Below, one piece after another: positions 35,323 through 63,810 of a DNA stretch of 64,000 bases; the first letter of the stretch is position 1; each line of letters opens with the position of its first letter. The notes beneath the pieces are model-generated. The model was not told where the DNA came from, did no database searches, and worked only from the letters and a program-made list of their open reading frames with translations. The position numbers and the translations under genes are program-made. The stretch covers positions 442,225 through 506,224 of the forward strand of contig NZ_CP013118.1 of assembly GCF_001443605.1 (NCBI RefSeq), given 5' to 3'. Source of the stretch: Salinivirga cyanobacteriivorans (GTDB lineage: Bacteria > Bacteroidota > Bacteroidia > Bacteroidales > Salinivirgaceae).

Positions 35323-36768
35323 ATGAAACCAATTGTGTATTTGAACAAGCGATCGCATCCGGGCAATAAAAAAAATTATATTGCTTTGATTTATAAAACG
35401 AATGAAACAGTTAATACGTTGATAAAACAGAATGACTGGATTCGTTTTAGCGAGCAAATTGGCCACTATGTGGTGAAATTTACTGAATCGAATTTGGCGC
35501 TGCTAAGGGATTTATTTGCTGGCTTTGCTGTGGTTAATACTCAGTATTTAGAGGCTGCTTCTGCTGTAACAGCCGACAACATAGAGATTCGTTCAGATGT
35601 GAGCTTTCGGAATCCGCTCTCTGTGGCTAAAAAATTGGGTTCTGTGCTAATCATCAACAAAAGAATCAGGAACAAAAGCTTTTTCCTTATTCGTTTTAAA
35701 TATAATTCTGAAATAAAAAATTTATTAAAAAAAAGCGACTGGTTAAGGTTCAACGAGGAACTAAAGCTATTTTATTTTGATGCTACGCGGCGACAGTTGC
35801 ATAGGTTTATCAAGGAGTTTTCTGGAAAACTAAAGATCAGCATTCACCAAAAAGTTCTTATACGCGATGTGGCTATTATTCAACTTTTAATGGAACAATC
35901 TTACGCAAAGGGATCACGATTTAAAGGTTGTCCGACTGATTATTTAAAATATATGATTTCGCGCAGTTATTCGCAAAACACCATTGCCACATATCATTAT
36001 TATTTTTTACGATTCATAAATTCATATCCCTGGTTGAATTTAAAGACGATTGAAAAATTTGGTGCGAAGGAAATCAATAGATTTCATGAGGATCTCAAAT
36101 CAACCGAAGGTGGCAGTACCAATAAGATACATCACAGTATAAATGCTATAAAATTATATTACCGAGAAATTGTTCGTACAGAGCTTGAATTGAATAGTAT
36201 TGTAAGGCCTAAAAAAGAGAAAATGTTGCCAAAAGTATGGAGTTTAGAGGAAGTTAGCAAGATTATCAGGCATATTGATAATTTGAAGCATAAAGCGATT
36301 ATTACTATAATGTATTCGGCCGGGTTACGTGTTAGTGAGGTGGTAAAGTTAAAGCCTGAGGATATTCACAGAGATCGCATGCAATTGAGAATACGATGTG
36401 CCAAGGGTAAAAAAGATCGGTATACTATTTTGGGTGCTAAAACACTTGAATTGATAGAGGCGTATTACAAGGCTTACCGGCCAAAAGAGTTTTTATTTGA
36501 GGGACAGTTTGGTGGAGCATATTCTGCTTCAAGTGTGCGTATGGTTTTAAATAATGCAGTAAAAAAATCGCGTGTAAAGCCTTATAGCGGCACGCATACA
36601 TTGCGTCACTCATTTGCCACACATTTATTGGAAGCGGGCACTGATTTGCGATATATACAGGGTTTGCTTGGGCACAACAACTCCAAGACGACTGAGATTT
36701 ATACGCACATAAGCAATGCACATTTACGTACAATTAAAAGTCCGGTAGATGGATTGGATATTTCATAA
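35323..36768 (+). CDS. Tyrosine recombinase adjacent to the cassette array (candidate non-canonical integron integrase)
   Basis: 481 residues from ATG 35323 (MKPIVYLNKR); the longer frame needs a TTG. The N-terminal ~180 residues are two copies of one module: NKRS...KQNDWIRFSEQ and NKRI...KKSDWLRFNEE. A SAM-like core-binding domain (about 195-290) and a full catalytic domain follow: SAGLRVSEVV (Arg), KGKKDRYT (Lys), HTLRHSFATHLLEAG (His-Arg), LGHNN (His) and IYTHIS (Tyr). The ~20-residue insertion characteristic of IntI is missing, so it is Xer-like by sequence. The first cassette begins 84 bp after its stop, in the same direction. Confidence 0.88.
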   Translation: MKPIVYLNKRSHPGNKKNYIALIYKTNETVNTLIKQNDWIRFSEQIGHYVVKFTESNLALLRDLFAGFAVVNTQYLEAASAVTADNIEIRSDVSFRNPLSVAKKLGSVLIINKRIRNKSFFLIRFKYNSEIKNLLKKSDWLRFNEELKLFYFDATRRQLHRFIKEFSGKLKISIHQKVLIRDVAIIQLLMEQSYAKGSRFKGCPTDYLKYMISRSYSQNTIATYHYYFLRFINSYPWLNLKTIEKFGAKEINRFHEDLKSTEGGSTNKIHHSINAIKLYYREIVRTELELNSIVRPKKEKMLPKVWSLEEVSKIIRHIDNLKHKAIITIMYSAGLRVSEVVKLKPEDIHRDRMQLRIRCAKGKKDRYTILGAKTLELIEAYYKAYRPKEFLFEGQFGGAYSASSVRMVLNNAVKKSRVKPYSGTHTLRHSFATHLLEAGTDLRYIQGLLGHNNSKTTEIYTHISNAHLRTIKSPVDGLDIS

Positions 36769-36860
36769 TAATGTTTAATTTTGGATAAAAAAAAAGCCGC
36801 TGGGTAATGACATAATGTATATAAATGCAATTCACATGCGCTTATCCAGTAGTTGGCAAC
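36769..36860 (+). other. Candidate attI and first cassette junction
   Basis: Between the recombinase stop and cassette 1. The junction is CAGTAG^TTGGCAACAACTG (G at 36852). GTTGGCAAC (36852-36860) is the exact reverse complement of the inverse core GTTGCCAAC at the start of attC1 (38256-38264), which places the first crossover here. The stretch also holds A-rich DNA (AAAAAAAAAGCCGCTGGG). Confidence 0.62.
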
Positions 36861-36912
36861 AACTGTCAGAGACCACATGCATCATAGAAACTAATAAGAT
36901 AGAAAAATAGAA

Positions 36913-37854
36913 ATGGCAATATTTGAGATAGATAAAGGAAAAGCAAAACGAGTTCGATTAAGTGAATTTAAACTTGAAAAAGACCTTCAAAGACTTGTTG
37001 AAGAGAATATTGAAACAATCTTTAATTGCCGTTTTATTGCAACAGAATTTTCTACAGGGAATATTCATTCTGGACGAATTGACTCTTTAGCAATTTCCGA
37101 AGACAATAATCCAGTAATTATTGAATATAAGAAAGTTGCATCGTCTGATTTAATAAATCAAAGTCTTTATTACTTGCACTGGATTAGAGACCATAAAGGA
37201 GACTTTCAAGTTGCAGTAAATAGAAAGTTCGGAAAAGAAATTGAAGTTGACTGGTCAGACATCAGAGTAATTTGCCTTGCCCCTGAATATAAAAAATATG
37301 ACTTGCATGCTGTTCAAGTTATGGGAGCAAATATTGAATTATGGCAGTATAAAATTTACGAAAATGGCATTTTAAGCATTGACGAGGTATATAAAAGAAC
37401 AAGCAGTTCCAATCATCAAGAAACTGAAGAATATTCCGAGAAAAATCCTATTATGGTGGAAGCTGGAAAAAAGGCTGCACTAACAAGAAAAACAGCAACC
37501 TATACACTGGAACAACATTTTGAAAATCTCGATGACAACATACTGGAATTGTTTAATGCGACAAGAGATTATATTATTTCATTGGACAGCACTATTGAAG
37601 AAACACCAAAGAAAAACTATGTGGCATATAAAACGAGCCAAAATTTTGTGTGCATGCAGACTTATAGAAAGAAAATAACTCTATATTTAAAACTCAATGC
37701 TGACGAAATTGAAACAATGCCAAAACAAGGACGCGATGTTAAAAACATTGGACATTTTGGAACAGGTGATTTTGAATTGACAATTAAAGATTTAAAAGAC
37801 CTTGAAGAAACTAAGTATTTAATTAATGAAGCATATAAAAATATTGGTGGATAA
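36913..37854 (+). CDS. PD-(D/E)XK nuclease-like protein with C-terminal DUF5655 (cassette 1)
   Basis: 313 residues. The N-terminal half resembles COG3586/NucS-DUF91 proteins: SGRIDSLAISEDNNPVIIEYKK contains the Asp and the E-x-K of a PD-(D/E)XK site. The C-terminal half (about 195-313, YTLEQHFENLDDNILELF to the end) resembles DUF5655. No signal or membrane segment. It probably cuts or binds nucleic acid; a phage-defence role is inferred from fold and context. First gene of the array, 53 bp after the candidate attI, followed after 2 bp by a small gene. Confidence 0.78.
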   Translation: MAIFEIDKGKAKRVRLSEFKLEKDLQRLVEENIETIFNCRFIATEFSTGNIHSGRIDSLAISEDNNPVIIEYKKVASSDLINQSLYYLHWIRDHKGDFQVAVNRKFGKEIEVDWSDIRVICLAPEYKKYDLHAVQVMGANIELWQYKIYENGILSIDEVYKRTSSSNHQETEEYSEKNPIMVEAGKKAALTRKTATYTLEQHFENLDDNILELFNATRDYIISLDSTIEETPKKNYVAYKTSQNFVCMQTYRKKITLYLKLNADEIETMPKQGRDVKNIGHFGTGDFELTIKDLKDLEETKYLINEAYKNIGG

Positions 37855-37856
37855 AC

Positions 37857-38246
37857 ATGAAAATAAAGTGTATCGAAATATCAATAAATGACGAAGATTT
37901 AGGCTGTCAAGTGACTTTTTCTGAGAAGAAAGATTTAGGAGAAGAAACTGCAAATATGACGGTGCAAGAAATAATTGATTCAATTGGCAGATACTTATTA
38001 ATCCAAAGGTCATATCCAGAATTTGAAGATGAAAGTGATTACATATACTTTGAAACTCATGATGAAGAATTTGCTGGTGAGTTAAGTGATTATGAAATGG
38101 TTTTATCAAGAGAACTGTTTGAACTGAAACTATTTGATGGGAAAATTGAAGTTTTAATAAATCCGACTGACAAGGAATATTCAGAGTTAAAAAAAATATT
38201 GCCGATTTTGACAAATAAAACAGGGAAACTGACTATAAATGACTGA
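37857..38246 (+). CDS. Hypothetical acidic protein (cassette 1)
   Basis: 129 residues, start ATG at 37857 two bases after the nuclease stop, so co-translated. Acidic (EDESDYIYFETHDEEFAGEL); no motif recognised. It ends eight bases before the attC1 inverse core. It could be an inhibitor or partner of the nuclease-like protein (inference from pairing only). Confidence 0.7.
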   Translation: MKIKCIEISINDEDLGCQVTFSEKKDLGEETANMTVQEIIDSIGRYLLIQRSYPEFEDESDYIYFETHDEEFAGELSDYEMVLSRELFELKLFDGKIEVLINPTDKEYSELKKILPILTNKTGKLTIND

Positions 38247-38253
38247 AAAACAG

Positions 38254-38390
38254 CAGTTGCCAACACGCAATATAGCAAAAAGCGGTGAAGTGCGTAATTG
38301 GGGCGTCTTTAGCCCGTTTCAACTTCATCTCGGTTTGATAGCGAATCACTCGCAATCCGCTTCATGCCATATTGCAAAACGTTACCGCTC
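38254..38390 (+). other. attC1
   Basis: 137 bp. Inverse core GTTGCCAAC, stem ACACGCAATATAGCA, returning stem TGCCATATTGCAAAACG and crossover G^TT at 38381. The centre carries a secondary arm (TAGCCCGTTTCAACTTCATC). Confidence 0.85.
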
Positions 38391-38478
38391 ATTTGGGGAA
38401 TGCTGCTAATTTGATAAGGATGAGAAATAATTTTACTTTTATAGTCATTTATAAAATTGAAATATTTAACCTCAGAAA

Positions 38479-38811
38479 ATGGATATTAAAGAACAATATG
38501 AAAGTTTAACTGTGGAGTTGAAAAAGACTATTCCATTTAAAGTCTTTCCCATTAGAGAACTAGTTCAGGAATTACGAAACAAAGGACATGAAATTACATT
38601 GAAAACTGAATTAATAGTAAAAGACGTTTATAACAGTGGAGATATAACAGGAATTGTCTGTATGATTGAAGAAAAAGAAGACGAAGCTTTAGCCTGTGCA
38701 TTGACACACCTTGAAATTCCAAGGAGTCATCCATTGTCAAAAGAGATTATTGCATATCAGAAAAAAAGAAATAAAAGGATTCAGAAATTGAATCAAAAAA
38801 ACTGGAATTGA
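38479..38811 (+). CDS. Hypothetical protein (cassette 2)
   Basis: 110 residues, [20 protein letters not shown], with helix-strand alternation and no known motif; basic C-terminus [15 protein letters not shown]. It is followed by the SWIM/SEC-C gene with start codons at its very end. Probably translated as a pair within one cassette. Confidence 0.68.
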
Positions 38812-38819
38812 TTGAGAAT

Positions 38820-39125
38820 ATGGGAAAACTTGGCACATCTGGAAATCCTATAAGACTTAGGGTTCAAAATGAAAGTAGAATGGAAGAGGTAGTAGCGATT
38901 TGCGAAAGAAATAACTGGATATTCGTATGTGGAATTGAGCCAGACTACCCTGAAGATATTTGTGAACTTGAATATATGCTTAATCCAAAGCAATTTAAAG
39001 GGAAAAGACCCAAAATGAAATTAATTGAAAATGCAACGATAATTAAAACCGAACCTGTAATCGGAAGGAATGATTTATGTCCATGTGGAAGCGGCAAAAA
39101 ATATAAAAAGTGTTGTTTGAATTAA
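38820..39125 (+). CDS. SWIM/SEC-C metal-binding protein, PBPRA1643-like (cassette 2)
   Basis: 101 residues: [38 protein letters not shown] and a C-terminal SEC-C motif [18 protein letters not shown] (CxCx8CC) that binds zinc. It fits the PBPRA1643 family of small SWIM/SEC-C proteins named from Photobacterium. A TTG at 38808 overlapping the previous stop is an alternative start. Function unknown. Confidence 0.82.
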
Positions 39126-39153
39126 TGACAAATACTGACTAAAAGAGAAAAAC

Positions 39154-39294
39154 GAGCGGTAACACGCGGTCATAAAACATTGGGGGCGAAGCGGTTAATT
39201 GAGCCTCGGTTCTCGCATCAAAATTCACTTCACCTTGATAGTTAAGTAACTCCGAAACCCCCAACGTTTTATACCGCCAACCGTTGTGCGGCAT
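39154..39294 (+). other. attC2
   Basis: 141 bp. Inverse core GAGCGGTAAC is the exact reverse complement of the cassette 2 start GTTACCGCTC (38381-38390). Stem ATAAAACATTGGGGG pairs with CCCCCAACGTTTTATA; crossover G^TT at 39283. Confidence 0.9.
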
Positions 39295-39399
39295 ACAAAA
39301 AAGCCAACCCACGGTCAAGCACATTTGGTTTTTTGCCAACACGCAAACCCAACGCTGAAAACCCAAAAGAGCTTGCCCTTTCCCAAACCACGACAGAAC

Positions 39400-39452
39400 A
39401 GCGAATAATATCATTGTATAAAAGCGAATATTTTCACTACAATACAGCGAAT
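39400..39452 (+). promoter_or_regulatory. Three AGCGAAT direct repeats at exact 23-bp spacing (operator)
   Basis: AGCGAAT at 39400, 39423 and 39446, directly upstream of the HTH gene at 39489. The regular spacing suggests repressor binding along one face of the helix and control of the restriction-modification operon by the HTH protein. The earlier part of the gap (39295-39399) shows no gene. Confidence 0.65.
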
Positions 39453-39488
39453 TTTACTATTTTAGTGCCAAATTAAATAGGTTTGAAA

Positions 39489-39698
39489 ATGAACCGAATT
39501 AAAGAAATCCTGAAAGCCAAAGGAATAACACAGACTTGGCTTGCTGAGAAAATGAATAAAAGCTACACGACAATAAACGAGTATGCTCGAAATGTGAGAC
39601 AGCCAAGTGTTGAGGATTTATATGAAATAGCTGACATTTTACAAGTACAGGCAACTGACTTGTTAGTAAATAAAAAGAATAACAATGATAGAAACTAA
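39489..39698 (+). CDS. XRE-type HTH controller protein (cassette 3)
   Basis: 69 residues, one HTH_3 domain: RIKEILKAKGITQTWLAEKMNKSYTTINEYARN (helix-turn-helix) and VEDLYEIADILQVQATDLLV. The size and place in front of a restriction-modification operon match C (controller) proteins that delay restriction until methylation is done. ATG at 39489 (a TTG two codons earlier is unneeded). Its end overlaps the methylase start by 14 bp. Likely ligand DNA: the AGCGAAT repeats just upstream. Confidence 0.88.
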   Translation: MNRIKEILKAKGITQTWLAEKMNKSYTTINEYARNVRQPSVEDLYEIADILQVQATDLLVNKKNNNDRN

Positions 39699-41709
39699 GG
39701 TTATCATTTCAATTCCCGAAGGAAAACTAAGGGACTACATTGACGGAACTATTCGAGTTGACACACCCGAAGAATACGTTAGACAGACCGTTGAGAAAAG
39801 ATTGATAAATGAACACAAATACTCAAAGGAGCAAATCAAAATTGAGTATGGAGTTCAAATGGGTTCAGGAAAGAAACGAGCTGATATTGTAATTTTTCCA
39901 AAAGACTCAACGGCTGAAGAAATGAAAGACCAAGACAACATTTGGTTAGTCATTGAGTGCAAAAAAGAAGCCGTAAAGCCGACCGACAAAAACAACGGAG
40001 TTGAGCAAATGAAATCTTACATGGCTGCTTGTGGAAACTGTGAGTGGGGAATGTGGACAAACGGAATGCACAAAGAAGTTTGGCGGAGAGTTCGGAATGA
40101 ACAAGGAAAATATATTTATGAAGAGTTTAATGACATTCCTTCTGCTGACGGAACAACTGACGAACACGAAAGACCAAATCGAAATACTTTAATAAAGGCT
40201 TACGAAGATAATTTGCTCTTTACTTTCAAAACTTGCCATAACATTATTTACGTTAATGAAGGTTTGCAAAAGCAACCTGCATTTTTTGAATTTCTTAAAA
40301 TCATTTTCTGCAAAATTCATGACGAACGTAACTTACTTGAACCAGTAGAATTTTTCACAACTTCAAAAGAGAGAAATTACAAAGACGGACAAGCCAGTGT
40401 TTACAAGAGGATTTCTAAAATATTTGAGGACGTTAAAAAGCGACACGGACAAATATTTGATAAAAGTGACGAAATAAAATTAGCACCAAGAACCGTAACA
40501 TATTTGGTTGCTGAACTTCAAAAATATGCTCTTCTAACTACAAATATTGACATTAAAGGAAAAGCCTACGAGGAGATTGTTGGTGCTAACCTAAGAGGTG
40601 ACAGAGGCGAATTTTTCACGCCAAGAAATGTGATGAAAATGGCAGTCGCCATGATTAACCCCAAAGAAACAGAACGAGTTTTGGACAGCAGTTGCGGAAC
40701 GGGTGGTTTTGTCGTTACAGCAATGACAGCGGTAATTGATTCTTTGCGTGAAAGAATGGAAAGCCAATATGGCGAAGAAGAAGGTTGGAACGCAGACGTA
40801 AGAAAAGCATTTAACGACAAAATTTCTGAAATCGCTTCTGAAAATTATTTTGGTTTTGACATAAATCCAGACTTGGTAAAAGCAACCAAAATGAACATGG
40901 TAATGAATAATGACGGAAGCGGAAATATTCTGCAACTCAATTCACTTTTACCACCCCAAGAATGGGAAGAAGAAACCAAAAAGAAACTTGCAAAAGCATT
41001 GGGAATTTCAGCGAGTGACATTCGCAATCACAAAAGTTTGGCTCATTTCGATATTATCGTAACCAACCCACCTTTTGGCTCAAAAATACCAATCAAAGAC
41101 CAACAAATATTAGAGCAGTTTGACATAGCCTACATTTGGAATAAAGACGAAAACGGAAATTGGTTTAAAACTGACCGTTTACAATCGAGTGTTCCACCAG
41201 AACAACTTTTTATAGAACGAATTATTCAACTTTTAAAAGAAGGTGGTAGAACAGCAATCGTTTTACCTGATTCAATTTTAGGTGCACCAGGTCTTGAATA
41301 CATTCGTCATTGGTTGATTAAAAACACCAAAATTATTGCAAGTGTTGATTTACATGCAGACGCATTCCAACCAAGAAACGGAACACAATGTTCTATCCTA
41401 TTCCTACAAAAGAAAACCAAAGCAGAAATTGCAGACGAAGAAAAATCAAGACAAATAATTGATTACGATATTTTCATGACTATGATTGACCACATTGGAC
41501 ATGATAAAAGAGGTGGCAAAATCTTCAAAAGAGACGAAAAGGGAAATATCGTAATGATAGAAGTTGAGGAACTTGTAAAAGAAAAAGATGCGGACGGCAA
41601 TTTAATTGCTCGTAAAGAAATTACGCAGGAAAAAATTGTAAATGACCAAACTATCCATGTTGCAGATGTTTTCAGCAAATGGAAAGCAAAACAAGGAATA
41701 GCATGGTAG
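39685..41709 (+). CDS. BcgI-like fused nuclease-N6-adenine methylase subunit (cassette 3)
   Basis: 674 residues. The N-terminal HsdR_N-like nuclease domain (about 1-160) shows KRADIVIF and WLVIECKKE, the D...ExK set of PD-(D/E)XK enzymes. The central/C-terminal HsdM-type methylase has the AdoMet motif LDSSCGTGGFVV and catalytic NPPF in IIVTNPPFGSK. With a separate specificity gene after it and no hsdR, this is the layout of type IIB (BcgI-like) systems. One protein would then cut and methylate when joined to the S subunit. A plain type I methylase that has lost HsdR is the alternative. Confidence 0.85.
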   Translation: MIETKVIISIPEGKLRDYIDGTIRVDTPEEYVRQTVEKRLINEHKYSKEQIKIEYGVQMGSGKKRADIVIFPKDSTAEEMKDQDNIWLVIECKKEAVKPTDKNNGVEQMKSYMAACGNCEWGMWTNGMHKEVWRRVRNEQGKYIYEEFNDIPSADGTTDEHERPNRNTLIKAYEDNLLFTFKTCHNIIYVNEGLQKQPAFFEFLKIIFCKIHDERNLLEPVEFFTTSKERNYKDGQASVYKRISKIFEDVKKRHGQIFDKSDEIKLAPRTVTYLVAELQKYALLTTNIDIKGKAYEEIVGANLRGDRGEFFTPRNVMKMAVAMINPKETERVLDSSCGTGGFVVTAMTAVIDSLRERMESQYGEEEGWNADVRKAFNDKISEIASENYFGFDINPDLVKATKMNMVMNNDGSGNILQLNSLLPPQEWEEETKKKLAKALGISASDIRNHKSLAHFDIIVTNPPFGSKIPIKDQQILEQFDIAYIWNKDENGNWFKTDRLQSSVPPEQLFIERIIQLLKEGGRTAIVLPDSILGAPGLEYIRHWLIKNTKIIASVDLHADAFQPRNGTQCSILFLQKKTKAEIADEEKSRQIIDYDIFMTMIDHIGHDKRGGKIFKRDEKGNIVMIEVEELVKEKDADGNLIARKEITQEKIVNDQTIHVADVFSKWKAKQGIAW

Positions 41710-43184
41710 ATAAAAGCAATTTAGCGTATAAATTTCAAGAAGTTGAAAAGGAAATAGATTACACATTTTTACCTGACCAACTCAAATACACTTCTGTTTC
41801 GCTAACTGAAGTTTTTACCAACAAACTACGTTTGGAAGCTAACGCCTTTAATTTGGAGGCAAAAGTTGCTAAAGAGAAAGTCATTAGCAGTAAATATGGA
41901 TTTATAAATCTTTGGTCAAGCAATGGTTTAGTTTCTAATGCTTTTTATCCCGGAAGATTTAAAAGAATCTATGTTTCAAAAAAGGATGGTAAACCGTTCT
42001 TTTTGCCTTCTCAAATGACTGAAATTAAGCCAAAGGCAACTAAATATATTTCACCGAAAACATATAAAACACTTGAAGGTGTTGAATTAGTGGCTAACAA
42101 TCTTTTAATGTCACGTTCAGGAACAATCGGTAAGTGTACGATAACTTCAAAATCAAATATTGGCAAATTATATTCAGATGATATAATCAGAGTCAGTTTT
42201 AAAAACGAATTTGATTTGGGTTATACTTATGCGTTTTTTCAAACTACGGTTGGTCAAATAATCCTACAAACCAATAATTATGGCGCTGTTGTTAAGCACA
42301 TAGAACCTGAACATTTAGAGAGCATTATTATTCCAAATGCACCTGAATTACTAAAAAAAGAAATTCACGAACTTGTAATAGAATCTTACGATTTACGAGA
42401 CGAATCAAACGACTTAATTGATAAAGCGGAATCAATTTTATACGAAGAACTTCAACTTAAACCAATTGAGGAGCTAAAAACAGAATACTTTGACAATTCT
42501 GTTGAGTTAAGAAATTACACCACAAAACTGAGTGATTTAAGATTGCGTTTAGACGGTTCATATCACATTCCAATTGTTCAGTTAGTAGAGCAGGAAATTA
42601 AACGTAATGCAAAAGAAATTTCCACAATCGGGCAACTATCAAAAGACGTAATTCTTGCAGGTGTTTTCAAAAGAACTTATGTTGACCGAGAAAATGGAGT
42701 GCCATTTCTTGGAGGTAGAGATATAACTCAATTAAATCCACAAGTAGAAAAATTCTTATCGAAAACTGTTCACGCTTCAAGAATCAAAAAGGAATTAGAA
42801 GTATTTGAGAACTACGTTTTAATTTCAGACAGAGGAACAATCGGAAAAGTTCAAATCGTGCCAAAACATTGGAATGGTTGGGCAGTTAGTCAAAACATTA
42901 TTAAGGTAATTGCAAACTCAAATGACATTGCAGGTTATTTGTTTTGCTTCTTTAATTCTGACTATGGACAAATTCTAATTAAACGAGAAACTTACGGTTC
43001 AGTGGTTGATATGATTGACGACAAGAATGTTAGCGGAATCCACGTTCCACTTCTAAAGAACGAGAAAAAACAAAAAGAAATAAATGATTTGGTTTTACAA
43101 GCTAATGAATTGAGATACCAAGCACACCTGAAAGAACAGGAAGCTATTAAGAAAATGGAAAATATAATAAACGACACGAAATAA
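41703..43184 (+). CDS. Type I/IIB specificity subunit (cassette 3)
   Basis: 493 residues from the ATG at 41703, which overlaps the methylase stop (ATGGTAG); an ATG 24 bases earlier is possible. Two target-recognition domains (about 50-205 and 310-470), each followed by conserved helices (KKEIHELVIESYDLRDESNDLIDKA and KKQKEINDLVLQANELRYQ). Both TRDs carry LxSRGTIGK-type strands (LMSRSGTIGKC; LISDRGTIGKV). It selects a bipartite DNA site for cutting and methylation by the upstream protein. Confidence 0.9.
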   Translation: MVDKSNLAYKFQEVEKEIDYTFLPDQLKYTSVSLTEVFTNKLRLEANAFNLEAKVAKEKVISSKYGFINLWSSNGLVSNAFYPGRFKRIYVSKKDGKPFFLPSQMTEIKPKATKYISPKTYKTLEGVELVANNLLMSRSGTIGKCTITSKSNIGKLYSDDIIRVSFKNEFDLGYTYAFFQTTVGQIILQTNNYGAVVKHIEPEHLESIIIPNAPELLKKEIHELVIESYDLRDESNDLIDKAESILYEELQLKPIEELKTEYFDNSVELRNYTTKLSDLRLRLDGSYHIPIVQLVEQEIKRNAKEISTIGQLSKDVILAGVFKRTYVDRENGVPFLGGRDITQLNPQVEKFLSKTVHASRIKKELEVFENYVLISDRGTIGKVQIVPKHWNGWAVSQNIIKVIANSNDIAGYLFCFFNSDYGQILIKRETYGSVVDMIDDKNVSGIHVPLLKNEKKQKEINDLVLQANELRYQAHLKEQEAIKKMENIINDTK

Positions 43185-43299
43185 TGCCAACGCTTAAAGC
43201 CATACACATTTGCAATTCGCACAAGCCAACGCTACAACCAAAAATTGCAAAAGAGTATGTCTTTGCCAACGCTGACGGACAGAAAATGAAAAAGTACGA

Positions 43300-43433
43300 C
43301 CGCACAACATTGTGTATAAGCAATAGCGGGTTCAGTGCTATTTTGAAACATAAAACTATAATCAAAGGTCGGTGCAATCTGAAAGTATAGTGGCTTAAAA
43401 CCGCTACTGCTCATACACAAACCGTTACTGCAC
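43300..43433 (+). other. attC3
   Basis: 134 bp. Inverse core CCGCACAAC is the exact reverse complement of the cassette 3 start GTTGTGCGG (39283-39291). Stem TTGTGTATAAGCAATAGCGG pairs with CCGCTACTGCTCATACACAA; crossover G^TT at 43424. A small reading frame across it is fortuitous. Confidence 0.88.
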
Positions 43434-43439
43434 ATTCCC

Positions 43440-43758
43440 CATATATGAACTTCCGAAGTAGATTTTAGCTAATTTATCTACTCCTCCAGCTCAGATTAAG
43501 TCCTTCTGCTAACGTATAAGTACCTCCGAAATAGATTTCTATTATATTTGAACCGACTCTTTGTGTGACCGATTTTTAACTGGTGCTTTTTAAAGCCCGT
43601 GGCGCATTCTGGTCGAAATGTAAAAAGCCCCTGAAGATGCATTTCAGAGGCCTGTTGATAAATCCAGTGGTGGTGCTGTTTAGCAACCCCGTTCAGAATA
43701 TTTCTCGATTCAAAGATACATTTCCTTAGAGTCATTATAAAACTTAAAAAAGAAAATT
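43440..43758 (+). ncRNA. IS110 5' region, candidate bridge RNA
   Basis: About 320 bp between attC3 and the IS110 transposase with no gene. It includes the hairpin GCCCCTGAAGATGCATTTCAGAGGC (about 43627-43651) and further short inverted repeats. IS110-group elements encode a bridge RNA in a long 5' non-coding end that picks target and donor; I infer one here. The IS left boundary is not fixed. Confidence 0.45.
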
Positions 43759-45138
43759 ATGGCAAGGAAAAAGAAAATTAAAATGGAGATTATAAATTAC
43801 AATGCAGCAGGAATTGATGTTGGTAGTAAATCTCATTTTGTAGCAGTCGGACAATCTTTAGAAGATGTTAAAGAATTCGGAGTATATGCCGAAGATTTAG
43901 TTAAATTATGCGAATGGCTATTATCTTATGGCATTACTTCTGTTGCAATGGAATCAACAGGCGATTACTGGCAAAATTTATATGTGGAATTGCAAAAGCA
44001 TGGAATTGAAGTTGTTTTATGTAATGGAAAGTTTACAAAAAATGCAAAAGGAAAAAAGACAGATGTAAAAGATAGTCGGTGGATTCAAAAGCTTCATTCT
44101 TTAGGTTTGTTGACAAGTAGTTTTTTACCTGATGAGAATACAGAAATATTACGAACTTATTGTCGTCAAAGAACAAACTGGCTGGAATTAGCAGCAAGTG
44201 CATCTCGAAAAATGCAGAAGTATCTTAAATTTTTAAATTTTCGTTTAGATGTAGTTGTAAATGATGTATGTGGTCTCACAGGACTTAAAATCATAGAAGA
44301 TATTTGTAATGGAAATCTTGATCCTTATTCATTAGCAGAACATAGACATTATAATTGTAGAAAACCCAAAGAAGAAATAGCTAAAGCTTTACATGGCAAC
44401 AACAGGGTAGATTATTTATTTGGGTTAAAGCAAGAGTATGATAGTTATAAATTCTTTCAAAGAAAAATTAAGGAATGCGATAAGGAAATAGAGAAATTAA
44501 TAAAAAATGAAATACAAAAGCATCCAGTAAAACAAAAGCTAAAGACAACAGCAAAACCACACAAAAGAATTAATAAAAATGCTATTGATATAAAGAACTT
44601 TAATCAAATAGCTTACCAATACTTTGGGGGTGTTGACCTTATGGCTATTGAGGGGGTGAGTCATGCAACAGTTATGTCAATTATGAGTGAAATAGGTATA
44701 GATGGCTTTAAAAAATTTAAAACAGCCAAAGAGTTTTGTTCTTGGTTACGACTAGCTCCTAATAATAAAATCTCCGGAGGAAAAATTCTTAGTAATAAAA
44801 TACCCAAAGGAAGTAATCGTTTAAAAATAGCACTGCGACATTCAGCAAATGCAATTGGAAATCTAAAAGATACACATATGTCAGACTTCTTTAAGCGCAT
44901 CGCTTATCGAAAAGGACGACAAGCGGCAGTAAGCGCAACAGCAAGAAAACTTGCAACAGTAATATGGACAATGGTCGTAAAACAAGTTCCCTATGATCCA
45001 CCAACAGCATATTTATTCCTTGACCAAAAAAGAAAATTAGGATTAGTAAAAAGAATTAAAAAACAAATGGCTAAATTTGACATAAAGACTGAAGATATTA
45101 ATTTGGGTAACTCGCTGAGCCCCAATTACAATTTTTAA
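43759..45138 (+). CDS. IS110-family DEDD transposase
   Basis: 459 residues. N-terminal RuvC-like DEDD domain: GIDVGSKSHFVAVG (Asp), MESTGDYWQNL (Glu), KTDVKDSRWIQKL (Asp-Asp). C-terminal Transposase_20 domain: LMAIEGVSHATVMSIMSEIG and SGGKILSNKIPKGSNRLKIAL with the catalytic Ser region. Intact, so potentially active. It sits inside cassette 4, between that cassette's start (43425) and its HigBA genes, and points in the array direction. Confidence 0.93.
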   Translation: MARKKKIKMEIINYNAAGIDVGSKSHFVAVGQSLEDVKEFGVYAEDLVKLCEWLLSYGITSVAMESTGDYWQNLYVELQKHGIEVVLCNGKFTKNAKGKKTDVKDSRWIQKLHSLGLLTSSFLPDENTEILRTYCRQRTNWLELAASASRKMQKYLKFLNFRLDVVVNDVCGLTGLKIIEDICNGNLDPYSLAEHRHYNCRKPKEEIAKALHGNNRVDYLFGLKQEYDSYKFFQRKIKECDKEIEKLIKNEIQKHPVKQKLKTTAKPHKRINKNAIDIKNFNQIAYQYFGGVDLMAIEGVSHATVMSIMSEIGIDGFKKFKTAKEFCSWLRLAPNNKISGGKILSNKIPKGSNRLKIALRHSANAIGNLKDTHMSDFFKRIAYRKGRQAAVSATARKLATVIWTMVVKQVPYDPPTAYLFLDQKRKLGLVKRIKKQMAKFDIKTEDINLGNSLSPNYNF

Positions 45139-45217
45139 CGTTAGTCAGAATTTAAAAAACTTTTTGCCGTCCGTAACTTTTTACCTATCTTTGGCGTTAC
45201 TAATTTAAGAGATAAGT

Positions 45218-45502
45218 ATGATTGTATCGTTTCGAACAAAGTCGACTGAAAAGATTTGGAATGGTGAACGGGTGAAAAAAATCCCGATTGAAATTCAGCA
45301 AATTGGCCGACGAAAACTGAGAATGTTGAATAACTCACAAAATTTAGCTGATTTGCGGATTCCGCCATCGAATCGACTAGAAAAACTAAAAGGATCGACA
45401 AACGATTTTTACAGCATTCGGATTAACGATCAATGGAGGATTGTTTTTCGTTGGGACAGCAATCGCGCACATGACGTTGATATTTTGGATTATCACAAAT
45501 AA
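45218..45502 (+). CDS. higB: HigB-family mRNA interferase toxin (cassette 4)
   Basis: 94 residues, RelE fold of the HigB type: MIVSFRTKSTEKIWNGE, QIGRRKLRMLNNSQNLADLRIPPSNRLEKLKG and INDQWRIVFRWD. These proteins cleave mRNA in translating ribosomes. Toxin-first order with HigA 11 bp downstream is standard for higBA. The genes stabilise the cassette or act in abortive defence. Confidence 0.92.
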   Translation: MIVSFRTKSTEKIWNGERVKKIPIEIQQIGRRKLRMLNNSQNLADLRIPPSNRLEKLKGSTNDFYSIRINDQWRIVFRWDSNRAHDVDILDYHK

Positions 45503-45513
45503 ACGAATTGATT

Positions 45514-45819
45514 ATGGACACTTTAGCAAACATACATCCTGGAGAAATATTATTGGAGGAATTTCTGAAACCAATGAGGATTTCAGCGTATCGACTGTCA
45601 AAGGACACCGAGATTCCACAAACACGGATTTCGATGATTTTAAAAGGACGACGACGAATAACTGCTGACACAGCGCTTCGACTGAGCTCGTATTTCGGGA
45701 CGACTGCAAAATTTTGGCTCGGACTACAAGACGATTATGACATTGAAGAAGTGAGCAAAGGAAAATCCAATCTTTTCAAGAGGATAAAATCAAAAACACA
45801 CCAGAACAGCGGTGAATAA
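45514..45819 (+). CDS. higA: HigA-family antitoxin (cassette 4)
   Basis: 101 residues from ATG 45514 (a TTG two codons upstream is less likely). HTH_3 domain: IHPGEILLEEFLKPMRISAYRLSKDTEIPQTRISMILKGRR, then LSSYFGTTAKFWLGLQDDYDI, the HigA C-terminal signature. It neutralises HigB and represses the pair. Confidence 0.93.
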   Translation: MDTLANIHPGEILLEEFLKPMRISAYRLSKDTEIPQTRISMILKGRRRITADTALRLSSYFGTTAKFWLGLQDDYDIEEVSKGKSNLFKRIKSKTHQNSGE

Positions 45820-45825
45820 AGCAAA

Positions 45826-45991
45826 GGCAGCACGTGCGTTTTCGTGGGTTCGGAGTTTAATTTTAACACCGCCAAAACTTCGTTTTGACGTTTAAAGATG
45901 TAAATTTGTAAAACAAAGTTTTGGCTCTGTGAAGTTCGATCGGTCTTTTCAAGTAAGGCCTTCGCTTCATAACCGCGTACGTTGTGCGTCA
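45826..45991 (+). other. attC4 (damaged inverse core)
   Basis: About 166 bp, crossover G^TT at 45981. The start reads GGCAGCACGTGCG where GTGCAGTAACACGTGCG is expected from the cassette 4 start GTTACTGCAC. A missing TAA would explain it. The loop (GAGTTTAATTTTAACACCGCC... TTTTGGCTCTGTGAAG) resembles that of attC6. Confidence 0.68.
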
Positions 45992-46049
45992 TTCTAAGTA
46001 GCGGCAGTGCATGCATTAAGTAATTAATAAATAGATAAAAGAACAGTAA

Positions 46050-47971
46050 ATGAATTTTTGGCATATGCAACTTCATCCTAACAATAGAGATGAAGTAAAT
46101 AGAGAAGAAGTCATAAAAATTATTACCGTAAAAAAATTATTGGTTTAGGTGCTGAATGGGAAAACGATAGAGGTCAGCCACAGAAATTTAAAAACGAAGT
46201 CAAGACTGGTGACATTGTATTAATTAGAAGTGATGGCCCTGTTGCTTTAGTAAAGGTGACTGGAAAATGCATCGAAAATGACAAAAATGATGTATGGTTT
46301 GAATTGATTAGAGAAATCGAGGTCATTTCACTTGAAGGTGAATTATTTAAAAAGGAATTCAAAAAGAACTTCACAAAAAATTGGAATGACTCTTTATATT
46401 TACCAACAACCATTGAAGGGGCTAATAACTCACCTTTCATACAATTTTGGTATCGAACAGTAAAAGATAGAATAATTATGGAAGATAGTATTGCATTACT
46501 CAAATACAAAAACCAAATCATTTTACAAGGTCCGCCCGGGACAGGTAAAACAAGACAGGCGAAATTAATAGCAGAGGAATTAACCAAACCGAGAACCGTT
46601 GGTAATCCTGAAAGGATTATAGATGATTTGGTTAAAAACTTCAATCCTAATGATGACACTATAAAAGCATCAAGGGATAAAAAGGAAAAATTACTTTCAA
46701 AATTTTATGAGTTATTTCCAAAAGAAAGTCTGAATAAACTCACATTGGAAAGCTATTGCGCCGGCAAAGGCGATAGAGATAATTTTTGCTGGTGGATTGA
46801 AACAGGTTTGAAGCCTTTAGGTTCTTATTCTCCAGGAAGTGCGAGGTCCTACCTTATTTACTGGAAAAAGGATATTGAGGACTACAGTAAACATGGTTTC
46901 GTAAAAGATATTGAAGATAACCAAGAGGCAATGAAAAAAGTTTCTGAATTAATTTATGATGTTGTTCAAAATAAAAATACATATAATTCCTCTCAATATT
47001 TTGGTAACAGTTTCTTGTTAAAACTACTTAATACATACTATCCAGATGAATATTTTCCGATAAATAGTGAAAGAATGATTGATAATGCTTTGAAAATATT
47101 CAAAGTGGATTTTCAAAATTTAAATGTATTTGAAAAGAACCAAAAGTTGAATCAAATATATATTGAAAAGAAAAATAAACTTAATAGTCAGATAAATAGT
47201 TTTGAATTTGGTAAATTATTGTGGGACAACTTCAATTTAAAAACAGGTGAGGATATAAGCGTAAATGATGAAGCGATAGCAACCGGAGCATATGAAATTA
47301 TCCAATTTCATCCAGGATACTCATATGAAGACTTTGTAAGGGGAATAGTTGCAGAAACAACTGAAAATGGAAATATAACGTACTCAGTTGTAAATAAAAT
47401 ATTAGCAGATTTTTCTCAAAAAGCAACCGATAACCCAAACGGAAACTATGTTCTAATTATAGATGAAATAAATAGAGCTAATCTACCTTCAGTTTTAGGC
47501 GAACTTATTTACGCTTTAGAATACAGAAACTCATCCGTAGTTTCTATGTACGAATATGAAGGTGAAAGAGAAATTACATTACCTAAAAACCTATATATTA
47601 TAGGTACTATGAATACGGCAGACCGTTCTGTTGGTCACATTGATTATGCGTTGAGAAGAAGGTTTGCCTTTTTTGATGTTTTGCCCGACGAAAACGTTAT
47701 TCAAAATCCAACTGCAAAAAAACTATTCCATGAAATTGAAACATTGTTCAGTAGTGACTTTCTATCACCCGACTTCAAAGCAAACGATGTGAAGATTGGA
47801 CACAGTTATTTTTTAATTCATGACCAGGAGAGAAAACGGTTGAATTTGTCTGATAATGAAATAATCAAAATAAAATTGGAGTATGAAATAAAACCAATTC
47901 TCAGAGAATATTTAAAAGATGGTGTTTTCTTAGAAACAGTAGATGAAAAAATTGAAGAATTAAATGTCTAA
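46050..47971 (+). pseudogene. mcrB: McrB-like GTPase/AAA restriction subunit with an N-terminal frameshift (cassette 5)
   Basis: ATG 46050 opens an N-terminal domain (MNFWHMQLHPNNRDEVN to ITVKK) that breaks in a run of seven A (about 46130-46136). One more A would give KKIIGLGAEWENDRGQ and continue into the long frame (TGDIVLIRSDGPVALVKV). The long frame holds the AAA core: GPPGTGKTRQAKL (Walker A), LIIDEINRANLPSVLGELIYALE (Walker B) and GTMNTADRSVGHIDYALRRRF (NTADRS/sensor). If translation starts at GTG 46256, only the N-terminal DNA-recognition domain is lost. It forms the motor of a modification-dependent McrBC nuclease and overlaps mcrC by 8 bp. Confidence 0.82.
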
Positions 47972-49238
47972 ATTACTATTCAATCGAGCGTTTTCAGAAC
48001 ACACTATTGGTGTAGATGTTTCATCAATAGATGGGCTTTCAAGTTCATCCATTCTTTTCAAACAAAAAGATGGTTGTGTTTGCATTGAAATTACTGAAGA
48101 TACCACAAGCAAAAAATTGAATTCAAATTATTATATAGGAACAGATTGGTTAAATAAAAACAAAACTGCAGTTTATGTAGCTCCAAAAATTAATGACGAA
48201 GCACAACAAACAGATTATCTCAGGATGCTTTTTTCCTGTCTGCGTCATTCTGATGTAGCAAGTTTCACTAATGATTTATATGAAATTAAATTTGAAGAGC
48301 CGTTTATCGAAATTGAACAAAAACAGGACTTGATTACACCGCTTTTGATAATTCAATTCTTGCAAATTTTAAAAAGTATTGTCAAAAAGGGATTGAAAAA
48401 ATCATATTACAAAATTGAACAAAACTTAAATTCAAAAATAAAAGGTAAAGTCTTAGTTGCTCAAACGTTAAAACATAATATAATAAAAAATCAACCAACA
48501 AAAACTTACTGCCAATACAATGAGTTTGGTTTAAACTGTATTGAAAACAGAATACTTAAAAAGACACTAAATTTTGTTCAAAGATATCTTGCGTTATTTC
48601 CCGAATATTCAAAACTGGTTGCATCAGTTATAAATTATTGCTCTCCAGCTTTTCAAAATGTTGACGCGAATGTTGATTTAAGAACATTGAAGAGCATTAC
48701 TCATAACTCATTCTTTAAAGAATACAAAGAGGCTATTTATTTATCAAACCTAATTTTAAAAAGGTTTGGCTACAACATAAAGGAAGTTGAAACATTAAAT
48801 AACGAGACGGTTAAAGTCCCACCCTTTTGGATTGATATGCCAAAACTTTTCGAATTATATGTCTTAGGATTACTAAAAGATAAATATTATAATGATATTA
48901 AATTCCAAATTCAAGGAACATATGGTCAACCCGATTTTGCTCTTGTATCTGAAAATCATAAAATGATAATAGACACAAAATATAAACGAAAATATCAGCA
49001 AGAAAAATATCAAGTAGAAGACATAAGACAATTAAGCGGATATGCAAGAGACAAAAAAGTATTATCAAAGTTAGGATACAAAACTGAACAAGAGCAAGGT
49101 AGAATAATTGATTGCTTAATAATTTATCCTGACCAATTAGCTTCAGAAAGGTTGAATGCCAACTTGAAAGAAATTCCGATTAGTGGTTTTACAAGATTTT
49201 ATAAAATGCCAATCAAATTACCAATTATTAATGACTAA
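47964..49238 (+). CDS. mcrC: McrC-like nuclease subunit (cassette 5)
   Basis: 424 residues. Conserved McrC features: YQYNEFGLN-type segment (TYCQYNEFGLNCIENRILKKTL), PPFWIDMPKLFELYV and the PD-(D/E)XK nuclease GQPDFALVSENHKMIIDTKYK followed by QLSGYARDKK. With McrB it cleaves DNA carrying modified cytosine or similar phage modifications. Start overlaps mcrB. Confidence 0.92.
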   Translation: MSKLLFNRAFSEHTIGVDVSSIDGLSSSSILFKQKDGCVCIEITEDTTSKKLNSNYYIGTDWLNKNKTAVYVAPKINDEAQQTDYLRMLFSCLRHSDVASFTNDLYEIKFEEPFIEIEQKQDLITPLLIIQFLQILKSIVKKGLKKSYYKIEQNLNSKIKGKVLVAQTLKHNIIKNQPTKTYCQYNEFGLNCIENRILKKTLNFVQRYLALFPEYSKLVASVINYCSPAFQNVDANVDLRTLKSITHNSFFKEYKEAIYLSNLILKRFGYNIKEVETLNNETVKVPPFWIDMPKLFELYVLGLLKDKYYNDIKFQIQGTYGQPDFALVSENHKMIIDTKYKRKYQQEKYQVEDIRQLSGYARDKKVLSKLGYKTEQEQGRIIDCLIIYPDQLASERLNANLKEIPISGFTRFYKMPIKLPIIND

Positions 49239-49275
49239 AATAGCCAGAAAACTGAATGACAAAGAAAAAGAACGA

Positions 49276-49411
49276 ACGCACAACATCGTATATAAAACAT
49301 TTGGCAGTCAGTGCGTTAACGAGTATTTCAGCTCGTATCAAAAGCACTTGTAACTTGACAGTGATGTGCTTCGAAATGCCAAACGTTTCATATACGTAAC
49401 CGTTACCACCT
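49276..49411 (+). other. attC5
   Basis: 136 bp. Inverse core ACGCACAAC is the exact reverse complement of the cassette 5 start GTTGTGCGT (45981-45989). Stem ATCGTATATAAAACATTTGGC pairs with GCCAAACGTTTCATATACG; crossover G^TT at 49402. Confidence 0.9.
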
Positions 49412-49541
49412 ATAGCGTAGATTCAACCGTCCGAATAAAAATATTATCTTTGAAAAGTGAAAGCAACAAAAAACCCGGCTTCATCACCAGCATAAGGACT
49501 GGGAGAGGAATCACCGGGACGACATTACAAAGATACAAAAA

Positions 49542-50195
49542 ATGGACCGAAAAACAATAGAACGAATTTTTTCTCCCGATAGATTAGCCCCTTATCTTCG
49601 AAAACACGATAATAATTTTGATAAAGCAATAGAACATTATAAGGCAAACATTGAGGTATCAGAAACTTTTTATCCTCTTTTGGCGATTTTAGAAGTTGGA
49701 CTCCGCAATCAAATGGATTATCAGTTACAAAGAAAATTTAATACGGATTCCTGGTATGATAATAACGATTTCATAAAGATTGTTTCCAGATTTCAAATTG
49801 ATAGGATAACTGATGCAAGAAATAGCATTTTGCGAGAAAAGAAAATAGTTACATCAGGTAAAGTAATTTCAGAACTTTCATTTGGATTTTGGACTTCTCT
49901 ATTAGATTCAAAATTCGAACGGACTTTGTGGAAAAAACTTCGGTTAGCTTTTCCAAATTGCCCTAAAACGATTCGACAACGCAAGACTATGAGTTCAAAG
50001 TTCAATGGAATTCGCAAATTACGGAATCGAATTTTTCACCATGAACCTGTGACATGGAATATCGATGTGATTAGAAATTATCGTGATGAAATAATTGAAG
50101 CGATTGATTGGCTTGATAAAGGTTTATTGGATTGGAGTAACGATATAATTAGAATTGACGAAGTAATTGATAAAAGACAATCGATAATCAAATAG
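49542..50195 (+). CDS. Abi-like HEPN protein (cassette 6)
   Basis: 217 residues, resembling the Abi_2 family of abortive-infection proteins: SPDRLAPYLRKHDNNFDKAIEHY near the N-terminus, FYPLLAILEVGLRNQMD, SFGFWTSLLD and the HEPN RNase motif in LRNRIFHHEPV (R-x4-H). It is expected to act as a nuclease triggered on phage infection; the trigger is unknown. Sole gene of cassette 6, ending five bases before the attC6 stem. Confidence 0.87.
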   Translation: MDRKTIERIFSPDRLAPYLRKHDNNFDKAIEHYKANIEVSETFYPLLAILEVGLRNQMDYQLQRKFNTDSWYDNNDFIKIVSRFQIDRITDARNSILREKKIVTSGKVISELSFGFWTSLLDSKFERTLWKKLRLAFPNCPKTIRQRKTMSSKFNGIRKLRNRIFHHEPVTWNIDVIRNYRDEIIEAIDWLDKGLLDWSNDIIRIDEVIDKRQSIIK

Positions 50196-50200
50196 CTACA

Positions 50201-50392
50201 GGTGGTAACACCTGCGAGTGAGCATAAGGCGCATGTGGCAGGTTTTTGAGCCCCGAGGAGTTTAATTCCCTCCGCCAAATCTTACGATTTGACGGGTTGA
50301 ATGTAAATTATAAATCATAAATTTGGCTCAGTGGAGCTTGAAAGGACTTAATAAGTAAACCTTTCGCTCACTAGCAGGAGACGTTACCAACA
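50201..50392 (+). other. attC6 (last site of the array)
   Basis: About 192 bp. GGTGGTAAC (50201-50209) is the exact reverse complement of the cassette 6 start GTTACCACC (49402-49410); the match extends to 14 of 15 with GCTACA/TATAGC. Crossover G^TT at 50383. The next stretch (50384-50700) starts like a cassette, TTACCAACAAGCC, but has no attC of its own and no gene longer than 12 codons (MATYETVKRYHY at 50657). Confidence 0.85.
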
Positions 50393-50701
50393 AGCCTAAG
50401 AAAGAAACGATAGTGGTAATTTTGCAGTGAGAAAATAAGAAAAATGAAACAGCCACCCCACAAAACAGCACATTTGCAAACCCCTGCAAGCCGACCCACA
50501 AACCAAAGTTTACAAAAAAGCTGTTTTTGCCCACACCACCTGTACCTATTTGACGGGCTGTTTGCTATCTGTAAAATGTTTTTTTACTAAAAAATCGCAA
50601 CTCTGCCGTATTATGGCATTATAAATTTGTTACTTTGATTTCAAAAAAACAGAATCATGGCAACCTACGAAACAGTAAAACGATATCATTATTGATAGGA
50701 C

Positions 50702-50928
50702 TTAACCCAAATTATTCATGTCATTAGCTTTGTGCAGATGCAAGGCATCTAAACCTGCAGATATAGTAATTTATTTCAAGGGTTTAGTAACGAAGCAGAT
50801 GTGCAAAGATAATGGCAAACATTACCCAAAAATGGGCTATTTGTTTTTCAATACACCATACAGTAAACACTTGTCTATTAATAACATAGAGATGGTTGCT
50901 AAAGTTTGTGGTGAATAATTCGGGTTAA
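50702..50928. repeat. 227-bp MITE with 17-bp terminal inverted repeats
   Basis: Left TTAACCCAAATTATTCA (50702-50718); right, reverse complement, TTAACCCGAATTATTCA (50928-50912): 16 of 17 match. It interrupts sequence right after a short frame starting at 50657. An internal 66-codon frame has no recognisable product. Confidence 0.8.
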
Positions 50929-50975
50929 TTATGCCACAAGAAAAGTAATGTATATCTTATAGAAAACTTTTTGAT

Positions 50976-53878: not shown

Positions 53879-54165
53879 TTGACAACGTTGCGCTTGTTTT
53901 GCTTACGCGCTGCCCTGTGTCCCTAAAGGGAGCCAAACCCGCGTACTATTTACCTTTTTGATTATATTTCATTGTTTCGTTTTCAATCTATCTGAAACCG
54001 AGCGCTGGACACTACCTAATCGGGGGAGCGTTGCTGAATCGAAACCCTCACTTATCGCTTTTTGTAGTGCCGGTGATTTTTTGTGCAGCAGTGATTGCAA
54101 TAAAAGTATAAGTGAAACCCGGTGAGTGAGGGCTTCGCTATTAAGGTTTATCCGGCATAAACGGT

Positions 54166-54456: not shown

Positions 54457-54570
54457 TTATGCTTATGCAAAAAATCTTTAGATAATTTGGATACTATGGT
54501 TTAGCCCCCTATAAATCGGACAATTTATTTTCAGGTTTCAAAAGTAACCATTTTTTTCCATAATATTGCA

Positions 54571-60413: not shown

Positions 60414-60417
60414 TTAA

Positions 60418-61260: not shown

Positions 61261-61263
61261 AGC

Positions 61264-63793: not shown

Positions 63794-63810
63794 TCTCAAA
63801 ATAAGTAACT

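What the first reader, a model, noticed from the sequence alone, without database searches (positions are those of the whole stretch)
35323..50392. Complete integron-like cassette array with a non-IntI tyrosine recombinase in the same direction as the cassettes
Seen: a recombinase gene, then six back-to-back cassettes each ending in a 134-192-bp palindromic attC-like site. For cassettes 1, 2, 3, 5 and 6 the first 9-10 bases are the exact reverse complement of the inverse core of that cassette's own attC (GTTGGCAAC/GTTGCCAAC; GTTACCGCTC/GAGCGGTAAC; GTTGTGCGG/CCGCACAAC; GTTGTGCGT/ACGCACAAC; GTTACCACC/GGTGGTAAC). Neighbouring cassettes differ, so this is not one repeated sequence; it is the footprint of excised circles. 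Known: classical intI is divergent from its array. A reversed arrangement has been reported for Treponema denticola. Inferred: this recombinase, which lacks the IntI insertion and carries a duplicated N-terminal module, drives the array. That would be a distinct integron class in Bacteroidota.
Basis: partly seen in the sequence, partly recalled or inferred. Interest (0 to 1): 0.95.

Follow-up and report, generated by a model that had tools for sequence, protein, structure and literature searches.

The report
Bacteroidota integrons with a non-IntI recombinase
A chromosome that likely belongs to the Bacteroidota carries a row of gene cassettes, many with predicted phage-defence genes, beside an enzyme that likely captures and swaps them and lacks a hallmark of the known integron enzymes; such cassette sites occur in over half of the 61 related genomes searched, and the immunity-gene arrays of two gut bacteria bear the same footprint.

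Summary
Beside a 481-aa Xer-like tyrosine recombinase lie an attI-like site and cassettes ending in attC-like hairpins. In 5 of 6 cassettes the first 9-10 bases are the exact complement of that cassette's own attC end; the array runs past the window to at least nine cassettes, 8 of 9 with this footprint. A model of these attC sites matches 38 of 61 genomes of the phylum, own genome included. Sites found by stem alone match their own cassette's start in 53 of 99 cases, permutation maximum 26. The bottom strand is predicted to fold better in 130 of 166 sites. One Lnu(H)-like cassette, 97.5% identical end to end, sits behind two recombinases 41% alike. The recombinase lacks the ~42-residue IntI insertion. 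New pattern: long recombinases (340 aa or more) mostly have the array downstream, co-oriented (33 of 39); short ones upstream, divergent (18 of 19 searched). rAID-like immunity arrays carry the footprint, and a recombinase fragment beside tet(X3) belongs to this family. Catalysis is inferred; separate origin from IntI is not shown (AU p 0.088).

The parts
35323..36768 (+). Xer-like tyrosine recombinase, 481 aa (P0001); catalytic R336, K361, H425, R428, H451, Y460
35332..35538 (+). first copy of the N-terminal module (residues 4-72)
   Evidence: predicted structure
35638..35844 (+). second copy of the N-terminal module (residues 106-174)
   Evidence: predicted structure
36769..36854 (+). attI-like region ending in the core GTT (36852-36854); TTATCCARTAGTTGGCA shared with a Rufibacter plasmid array
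36853..38381 (+). cassette 1: PDC-S18/DUF5655 candidate defence protein (36913-37854) and a small ORF (37857-38246)
38262..38383 (+). attC1, 122 nt
38382..39283 (+). cassette 2: two small ORFs, the second with a SEC-C motif
39161..39285 (+). attC2, 125 nt
39284..43424 (+). cassette 3: N6 DNA methyltransferase (39685-41709) and specificity subunit (41679-43184)
43306..43426 (+). attC3, 121 nt
43425..45981 (+). cassette 4, damaged: IS110 transposase (43759-45138), YoeB-like ORF under its cut-off (45218-45502), HigA-family antitoxin (45508-45819); own attC lacks its 5' arm
45828..45983 (+). attC4 remnant
45982..49402 (+). cassette 5: McrB-like AAA ATPase (46256-47971) and McrBC-component protein (47964-49238)
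49282..49404 (+). attC5, 123 nt
49403..50383 (+). cassette 6: Abi-like protein (49542-50195)
50207..50385 (+). attC6, 179 nt
50384..64000 (+). cassette 7 up to the window's end (full extent 50384 to about 66249, holding transposase genes); its attC at 66076-66251 matches its start over 9 bases

Best explanation
This is an integron-type cassette array of likely Bacteroidota origin, in which a co-oriented Xer-like tyrosine recombinase that lacks the IntI insertion likely captures, excises and reorders gene cassettes at an adjacent attI-like site. Shown by sequence: an attI-like site just 3' of the gene, cassettes that begin with the complement of their own attC end (8 of 9), and, in relatives, one cassette present with exact ends in two different integrons. 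Predicted: attC hairpins better folded on the bottom strand. Inferred: that the bottom strand of attC, single-stranded or extruded, is cut before TT of GTT and joined to attI, with the second strand resolved by replication as in classical integrons; and that the N-terminal module helps to recognise DNA. The system is widespread in the phylum, exists in a co-oriented form (long recombinase) and a divergent form (short recombinase), and likely also builds rAID immunity arrays.
For: Own-cassette footprint, 8 of 9 cassettes counting those past the window. 24 of 61 loci with at least 1.5 kb of 3' DNA beat all 183 shuffles. Stem-only sites in 24 loci: 53 of 99 match own cassette start at 5 or 6 of 6 bases, 4 of 99 for the same linear site, 23 of 388 for other pairs, permutation mean 14.6, maximum 26 of 2000. 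Bottom strand more stable in 130, top in 34, equal in 2 of 166 sites; control hairpins 32 against 39 of 72. Same cassette, 97.5% over 1061 bp from GTT to GTT, behind recombinases 41% alike (two genomes of one genus), flanks without match except 104 bp of the recombinase gene and 125 bp elsewhere. Model R1: sites on the expected side in 33 of 39 long-recombinase and 18 of 19 searched short-recombinase loci; 0 of 38 loci from other phyla, counted by me from titles. rAID-like arrays: chain 42 against at most 8.5, and 36 against at most 15.5, in 15 shuffles each. No TIGR02249 match over cut-off in the genome.
Against: No experiment; recombinase action on attC is inferred from adjacency. The own genome has attC clusters far from the only such recombinase, so adjacency is not required, as with classical CALINs. 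37 of 61 loci did not beat the shuffles, among them L012 (18) and L046 (21), which are arrays by eye. In the genome contigs set 22 of 39 long and 39 of 41 short loci have no R1 match, in part from contig ends or other phyla. R1 was trained on 38 sites of loci that are then counted, so the co-oriented counts are partly by construction. Exceptions to the orientation rule: L134 and L144 (long, divergent), L051, L088 and L121 (short or broken, co-oriented), L096 (neither). Chain scores of 40 (L189, Bacilli) and shuffles up to 42 occur. The ATT core for rAID was chosen after reading L046. Cassette 4 and the tet(X3) 3' site fail the footprint test.
Confidence: 0.88

Rival explanations
1. The cassettes are moved by a different enzyme, such as chromosomal XerC/XerD or an IntI elsewhere, and the neighbouring recombinase merely marks an old insertion.
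For: The genome encodes 13 other tyrosine recombinase matches, and attC clusters lie far from the array recombinase.
Against: Arrays lie on a predictable side of, and next to, the recombinase in most phylum-sample loci with a site; 0 of 38 loci from other phyla match R1; no IntI over cut-off in the genome.
Confidence: 0.07
2. The palindromes are REP-like or terminator-like repeats spread by copying, and the complementarity is a by-product of palindromy.
For: Sites are palindromic, similar in length and numerous.
Against: The match is to the start of the same cassette, hundreds to thousands of bases away, not within the same palindrome: 53 of 99 against 4 of 99; one cassette shared with exact ends by two integrons.
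Confidence: 0.02
3. An IntI integron whose integrase has lost the insertion and gained a module, so a derived member of the IntI clade.
For: AU test does not reject IntI plus the Bacteroidota recombinases as one clade, p 0.088; top fold match is IntI4, with archaeal XerA next.
Against: In the careful tree of 51 rows IntI groups with archaeal and Patescibacteria XerA-like enzymes, support 95/87, without any Bacteroidota array recombinase; GLR to HxLRH distance is 91-92 residues in most family members (83-98 overall) against 133 in the two IntI measured.
Confidence: 0.3

Closest known systems
Classical integrons (IntI1, Vibrio IntIA/IntI4 sedentary integrons)
   Same: Recombinase next to attI, attC hairpins with asymmetric arms, predicted bottom-strand bias, cassettes whose start complements their own attC end, CALIN-like clusters elsewhere (classical features recalled)
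   Different: Recombinase lacks the ~42-residue IntI insertion, has extra N-terminal modules, scores under the TIGR02249 cut-off, and is co-oriented with the cassettes; attC lengths group near 59, 124 and 189 nt; the window's cores do not all fit the classical GTTRRRY
Treponema integrons (PMC3607928, passages seen)
   Same: intI transcribed toward attI, in the direction of the cassettes
   Different: Described there as intI; the enzyme here lacks the IntI insertion
rAID, recombinase-associated acquired interbacterial defence of gut Bacteroidales (PMC12247911, passages seen; 2019 founding paper not held, recalled only)
   Same: Tyrosine recombinase followed by co-oriented small genes and intergenic motifs; two rAID-like plasmid loci (my identification) show the own-cassette footprint here
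   Different: rAID is defined by orphan immunity genes; the window holds predicted phage-defence genes. Core ATTA in place of GTTA, sites 43-46 nt. The paper calls how a rAID gains second gene copies not yet clear and its biogenesis an area of active research
Homology-independent insertion of aph(3')-IVb, with lnu(H) and blaRATA named as parallels, in Riemerella anatipestifer (PMC13148043, passages seen)
   Same: A 140-bp 3' segment is likened to attC there; a Lnu(H)-family gene is a cassette with attC in two integrons here
   Different: No recombinase was named in the passages seen; Riemerella DNA was not examined here

Membership tests
Integron (functional definition) | tyrosine recombinase gene adjacent to an attI site | tested here: met
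   attI inferred from position and likeness, not by recombination
Integron (functional definition) | array of cassettes ending in palindromic attC sites of unlike sequence | tested here: met
Integron (functional definition) | cassette start complements own attC end (circle footprint) | tested here: met
Integron (functional definition) | bottom strand of attC is the substrate | tested here: inconclusive
   predicted folding energy bias 130 to 34; no recombination assay
Integron (functional definition) | cassettes move as exact units | tested here: met
   one shared cassette with exact ends in two related loci; not shown for the window's own cassettes
IntI integron integrase | NCBIfam TIGR02249 cut-off 265 bits | tested here: not met
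   189 bits
IntI integron integrase | IntI-specific insertion in the catalytic domain | tested here: not met
IntI integron integrase | falls inside the IntI clade | tested here: inconclusive
   outside in trees, common clade not rejected, p 0.088
NF040815 site-specific tyrosine recombinase/integron integrase | curated cut-off 220 bits | tested here: not met
   196.6 bits
rAID | rAID-type recombinase with co-oriented orphan immunity genes | tested here: not met
   recombinase related (L046, L195) but the window's cassettes show no immunity-protein families

The most novel reading that the evidence does not exclude
Bacteroidota hold a second, phylum-wide kind of integron in which folded single-stranded cassette capture arose with a separate Xer lineage; gain of an N-terminal DNA-binding module moved attI from the front of the recombinase gene to its end, and this one system underlies rAID immunity arrays, the homology-free spread of Lnu(H)-type genes and the origin of mobile tet(X).
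Probability: 0.35. Interest if true: 0.95.

Novelty: new variant of a known kind. Interest (0 to 1): 0.86.

Why it matters
[quoted passage not shown] Here a model of these attC sites matches 38 of 61 sampled genomes of the phylum, beside recombinases that score under IntI cut-offs. This offers a testable mechanism for how gut bacteria assemble rAID immunity arrays, and for resistance genes reported to enter Riemerella without homology. The link between recombinase length and array side is a natural experiment on how an integrase tells attI from attC.
Full report
What is there. The window lies in a single-contig genome of 4,812,386 bases; named relatives of the recombinase are Bacteroidota such as Plebeiibacterium, Labilibaculum and Carboxylicivirga, so the host is likely a member of that phylum, and I call the 'same phylum' genomes of later calls Bacteroidota on that ground. 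The gene at 35323-36768 encodes a 481-aa tyrosine recombinase with PF13495 and PF00589 domains and the catalytic set R336, K361, H425, R428, H451, Y460. NCBIfam places it nearest to NF040815 (196.6 bits, cut-off 220) and TIGR02249 integron integrase (189 bits, cut-off 265, in two stretches). Against IntI4 the alignment jumps from chain residue 211 to 254 while the query moves from 410 to 412; the distance from the GLR motif to HxLRH is 91-92 residues in most family members (range 83-98) and 133 in the two IntI proteins measured. So the IntI insertion is absent.

The array. attI-like DNA follows the stop codon, with the core GTT at 36852. Cassette boundaries and attC sites are in the parts list. 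The first 9, 10, 9, 9 and 10 bases of cassettes 1, 2, 3, 5 and 6 are the exact complement of the outer end of their own attC; cassette 4, which holds an IS110 element and a HigA-family antitoxin gene, has lost the 5' arm of its attC. Past attC6 the next start, GTTACCAAC, is matched by an attC at 66076-66251 (extended window coordinates), and two further cassettes end at 67233 and 68047, each with a 9-base match; one other stem-only site, 58045-58112, matches no start and was left out. So the array has at least nine cassettes, 8 of 9 with the footprint, over about 31 kb. Predicted contents of the six in the window include a PDC-S18 candidate defence protein, a methyltransferase with specificity subunit, an McrBC pair and an Abi-like protein; the MAD2 and MAD5 matches of the methyltransferase pair are under their cut-offs.

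Is it more than chance, and does it recur. In 395 genomes of the phylum, own included, 112 hold a relative of the recombinase at E at most 1e-40; few candidates per genome were scored, so this is a lower bound. From those hits I fetched 60 loci, not all, with about 8 kb of 3' DNA where the contig allowed; with the window and seven plasmid loci that makes 68, of which 61 had at least 1.5 kb downstream. A chain test (GTT near the stop, stem, own-cassette 6-mer) put 24 of 61 above the maximum of 183 shuffles. It misses short sites: L012, an array by eye, scores 18. To free the footprint from circularity I then took sites by stem alone: in 24 loci with three or more such sites, 53 of 99 match the start of their own cassette at 5 or 6 of 6 bases, against 4 of 99 for the other end of the same palindrome and 23 of 388 for other pairs; 2000 permutations gave mean 14.6 and maximum 26. 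attC lengths are grouped: of 112 sites in the high-scoring loci 77 lie at 121-127 nt, 6 at 58-59, 9 at 182-192 and 20 elsewhere.

Strand bias and spacers. Over 166 attC sites from 38 loci the bottom strand is predicted to be more stable in 130, the top in 34, with 2 equal; hairpins of like score in and upstream of the recombinase genes show 32 against 39 of 72. The commonest unpaired spacers are 1-3 nt on the 5' side and 5-6 nt on the 3' side. Both fit the single-strand, bottom-strand mechanism of classical integrons (recalled for IntI), which is here inferred. One of the 38 loci, L189, is from a Bacilli MAG and may be a chance chain.

A cassette that moved. Between L047 and L065, from two genomes of one genus, a stretch of 1061 bp is 97.5% identical and begins and ends at the GTT cores; the recombinases beside it are 41% alike, and the flanks compared share only a 104-bp match in the recombinase gene and one 125-bp match elsewhere. 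Its gene is of the Lnu(H) family (452.6 bits, cut-off 540). A 2026 paper reports homology-free insertion of an aph(3')-IVb gene with a 140-bp attC-like 3' segment in Riemerella and names lnu(H) as a parallel (PMC13148043, passages seen).

Two layouts. A covariance model (R1, 38 sites of about 124 nt) matches 38 of 61 genomes at E at most 0.001, own included. Judged by recombinase length, which stands in for the N-terminal module, 33 of 39 long proteins (340 aa or more) have sites downstream on the same strand, 1 another place and 5 none; of 21 short ones, with only 2 kb of 5' DNA fetched, 9 have sites upstream on the other strand, 2 downstream and 10 none. Refetching the 5' side of 20 short-recombinase loci (one had only 875 bases) and searching 19 gave 18 with divergent sites; in the chain test 10 of 19 pass the maximum of 57 shuffles, 24, and the best scores 87.5. 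In 80 named loci from genome contigs long ones are 15 co-oriented, 2 divergent, 22 without; short ones 1, 1 and 39. By my reading of titles 38 of the 80 are from other phyla and none of these has a site. In the chain test on these, 8 of 55 loci pass the maximum of 110 shuffles, 42, downstream; upstream only L180 does, a Calditrichia protein of the IntI clade, with 45. R1 was trained on loci that are then counted, so the co-oriented counts are partly by construction; the divergent ones are not.

Own genome. R1 gives 20 sites at E below 0.01: five in the window, counting a lone one at 20324-20449 on the other strand (two of the five were training sites), and 15 outside; only 150 of 3918 candidates were scored. 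Of eight fetched regions five show own-cassette links that shuffles rarely give; one of the five is this array's continuation. So cassettes also sit in clusters without a neighbouring recombinase of this kind, like CALINs. No TIGR02249 match reaches the cut-off.

Links to known loci. In plasmids of Parabacteroides distasonis and Bacteroides ovatus a related recombinase leads an array of genes annotated as immunity proteins, which I take for rAID. I read the L046 sites by eye, relaxed the core to ATT or GTT, and then scored: L195 reaches 42 against a shuffle maximum of 8.5, with all five links at 6 of 6, and L046 36 against 15.5; with the first core L046 had scored 21. The 2025 rAID paper calls rAID biogenesis an area of active research (PMC12247911, passages seen). 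The recombinase gene next to tet(X3) in Acinetobacter plasmids is a fragment 54.5% identical to residues 270-480 of the window's enzyme and groups with L047 and L126.

Phylogeny. In a careful tree of 51 rows (chosen from 81; long or odd rows dropped) IntI forms one clade with L180 and L191 and groups with archaeal and Patescibacteria XerA-like proteins at 95/87, without any Bacteroidota array recombinase; the latter do not form one clade either. A common clade of IntI and the Bacteroidota enzymes is not rejected (AU p 0.088). Separate origin is thus open.

Verdict. It works like an integron and meets the testable parts of the functional definition; it does not meet the two sequence criteria for IntI. 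Filed as a new variant of a known kind, widespread in the phylum and with two layouts.

Noticed in passing
window 43424-45175 and L011 14910-16580: An IS110-family element seems to begin at the same place, about 10 nt after the core GTT of a cassette, in two arrays (ATTCCCC after GTTNNNNNNN), and both copies are followed by AACGTTAGTCAG; IS110 genes also lie in the L012 and L043 arrays. This recalls the habit of some IS110/IS1111 elements of targeting attC (recalled).
   Followed up: partly
window 20324-20449, - strand: A lone attC-like site far upstream of the recombinase, E 1.5e-4 with model R1; no own-cassette link found in the 4 kb fetched.
   Followed up: partly
genome G000:C1 109878-303189 (outside the window): Eleven similar 310-316-aa tyrosine recombinase genes on the minus strand within 200 kb, an unusual cluster.
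   Followed up: no
attC sites across loci: attC lengths cluster near 59, 124 and 189 nt, steps of about 65 nt, as if a hairpin module were added in units.
   Followed up: partly
L013 and L194, 5' of tet(X3): An attI-like inverted repeat TATACGCC..GGCGTATA ends shortly before GTTATGTGCC, directly 5' of tet(X3) and 3' of the recombinase fragment.
   Followed up: partly
window 50976-55988: The very long cassette 7 holds transposase-like ORFs (50976-51899 on +, 54571-55434 and 55665-55988 on -) and an ATPase-like ORF (52703-53878), named by eye from the translations.
   Followed up: no
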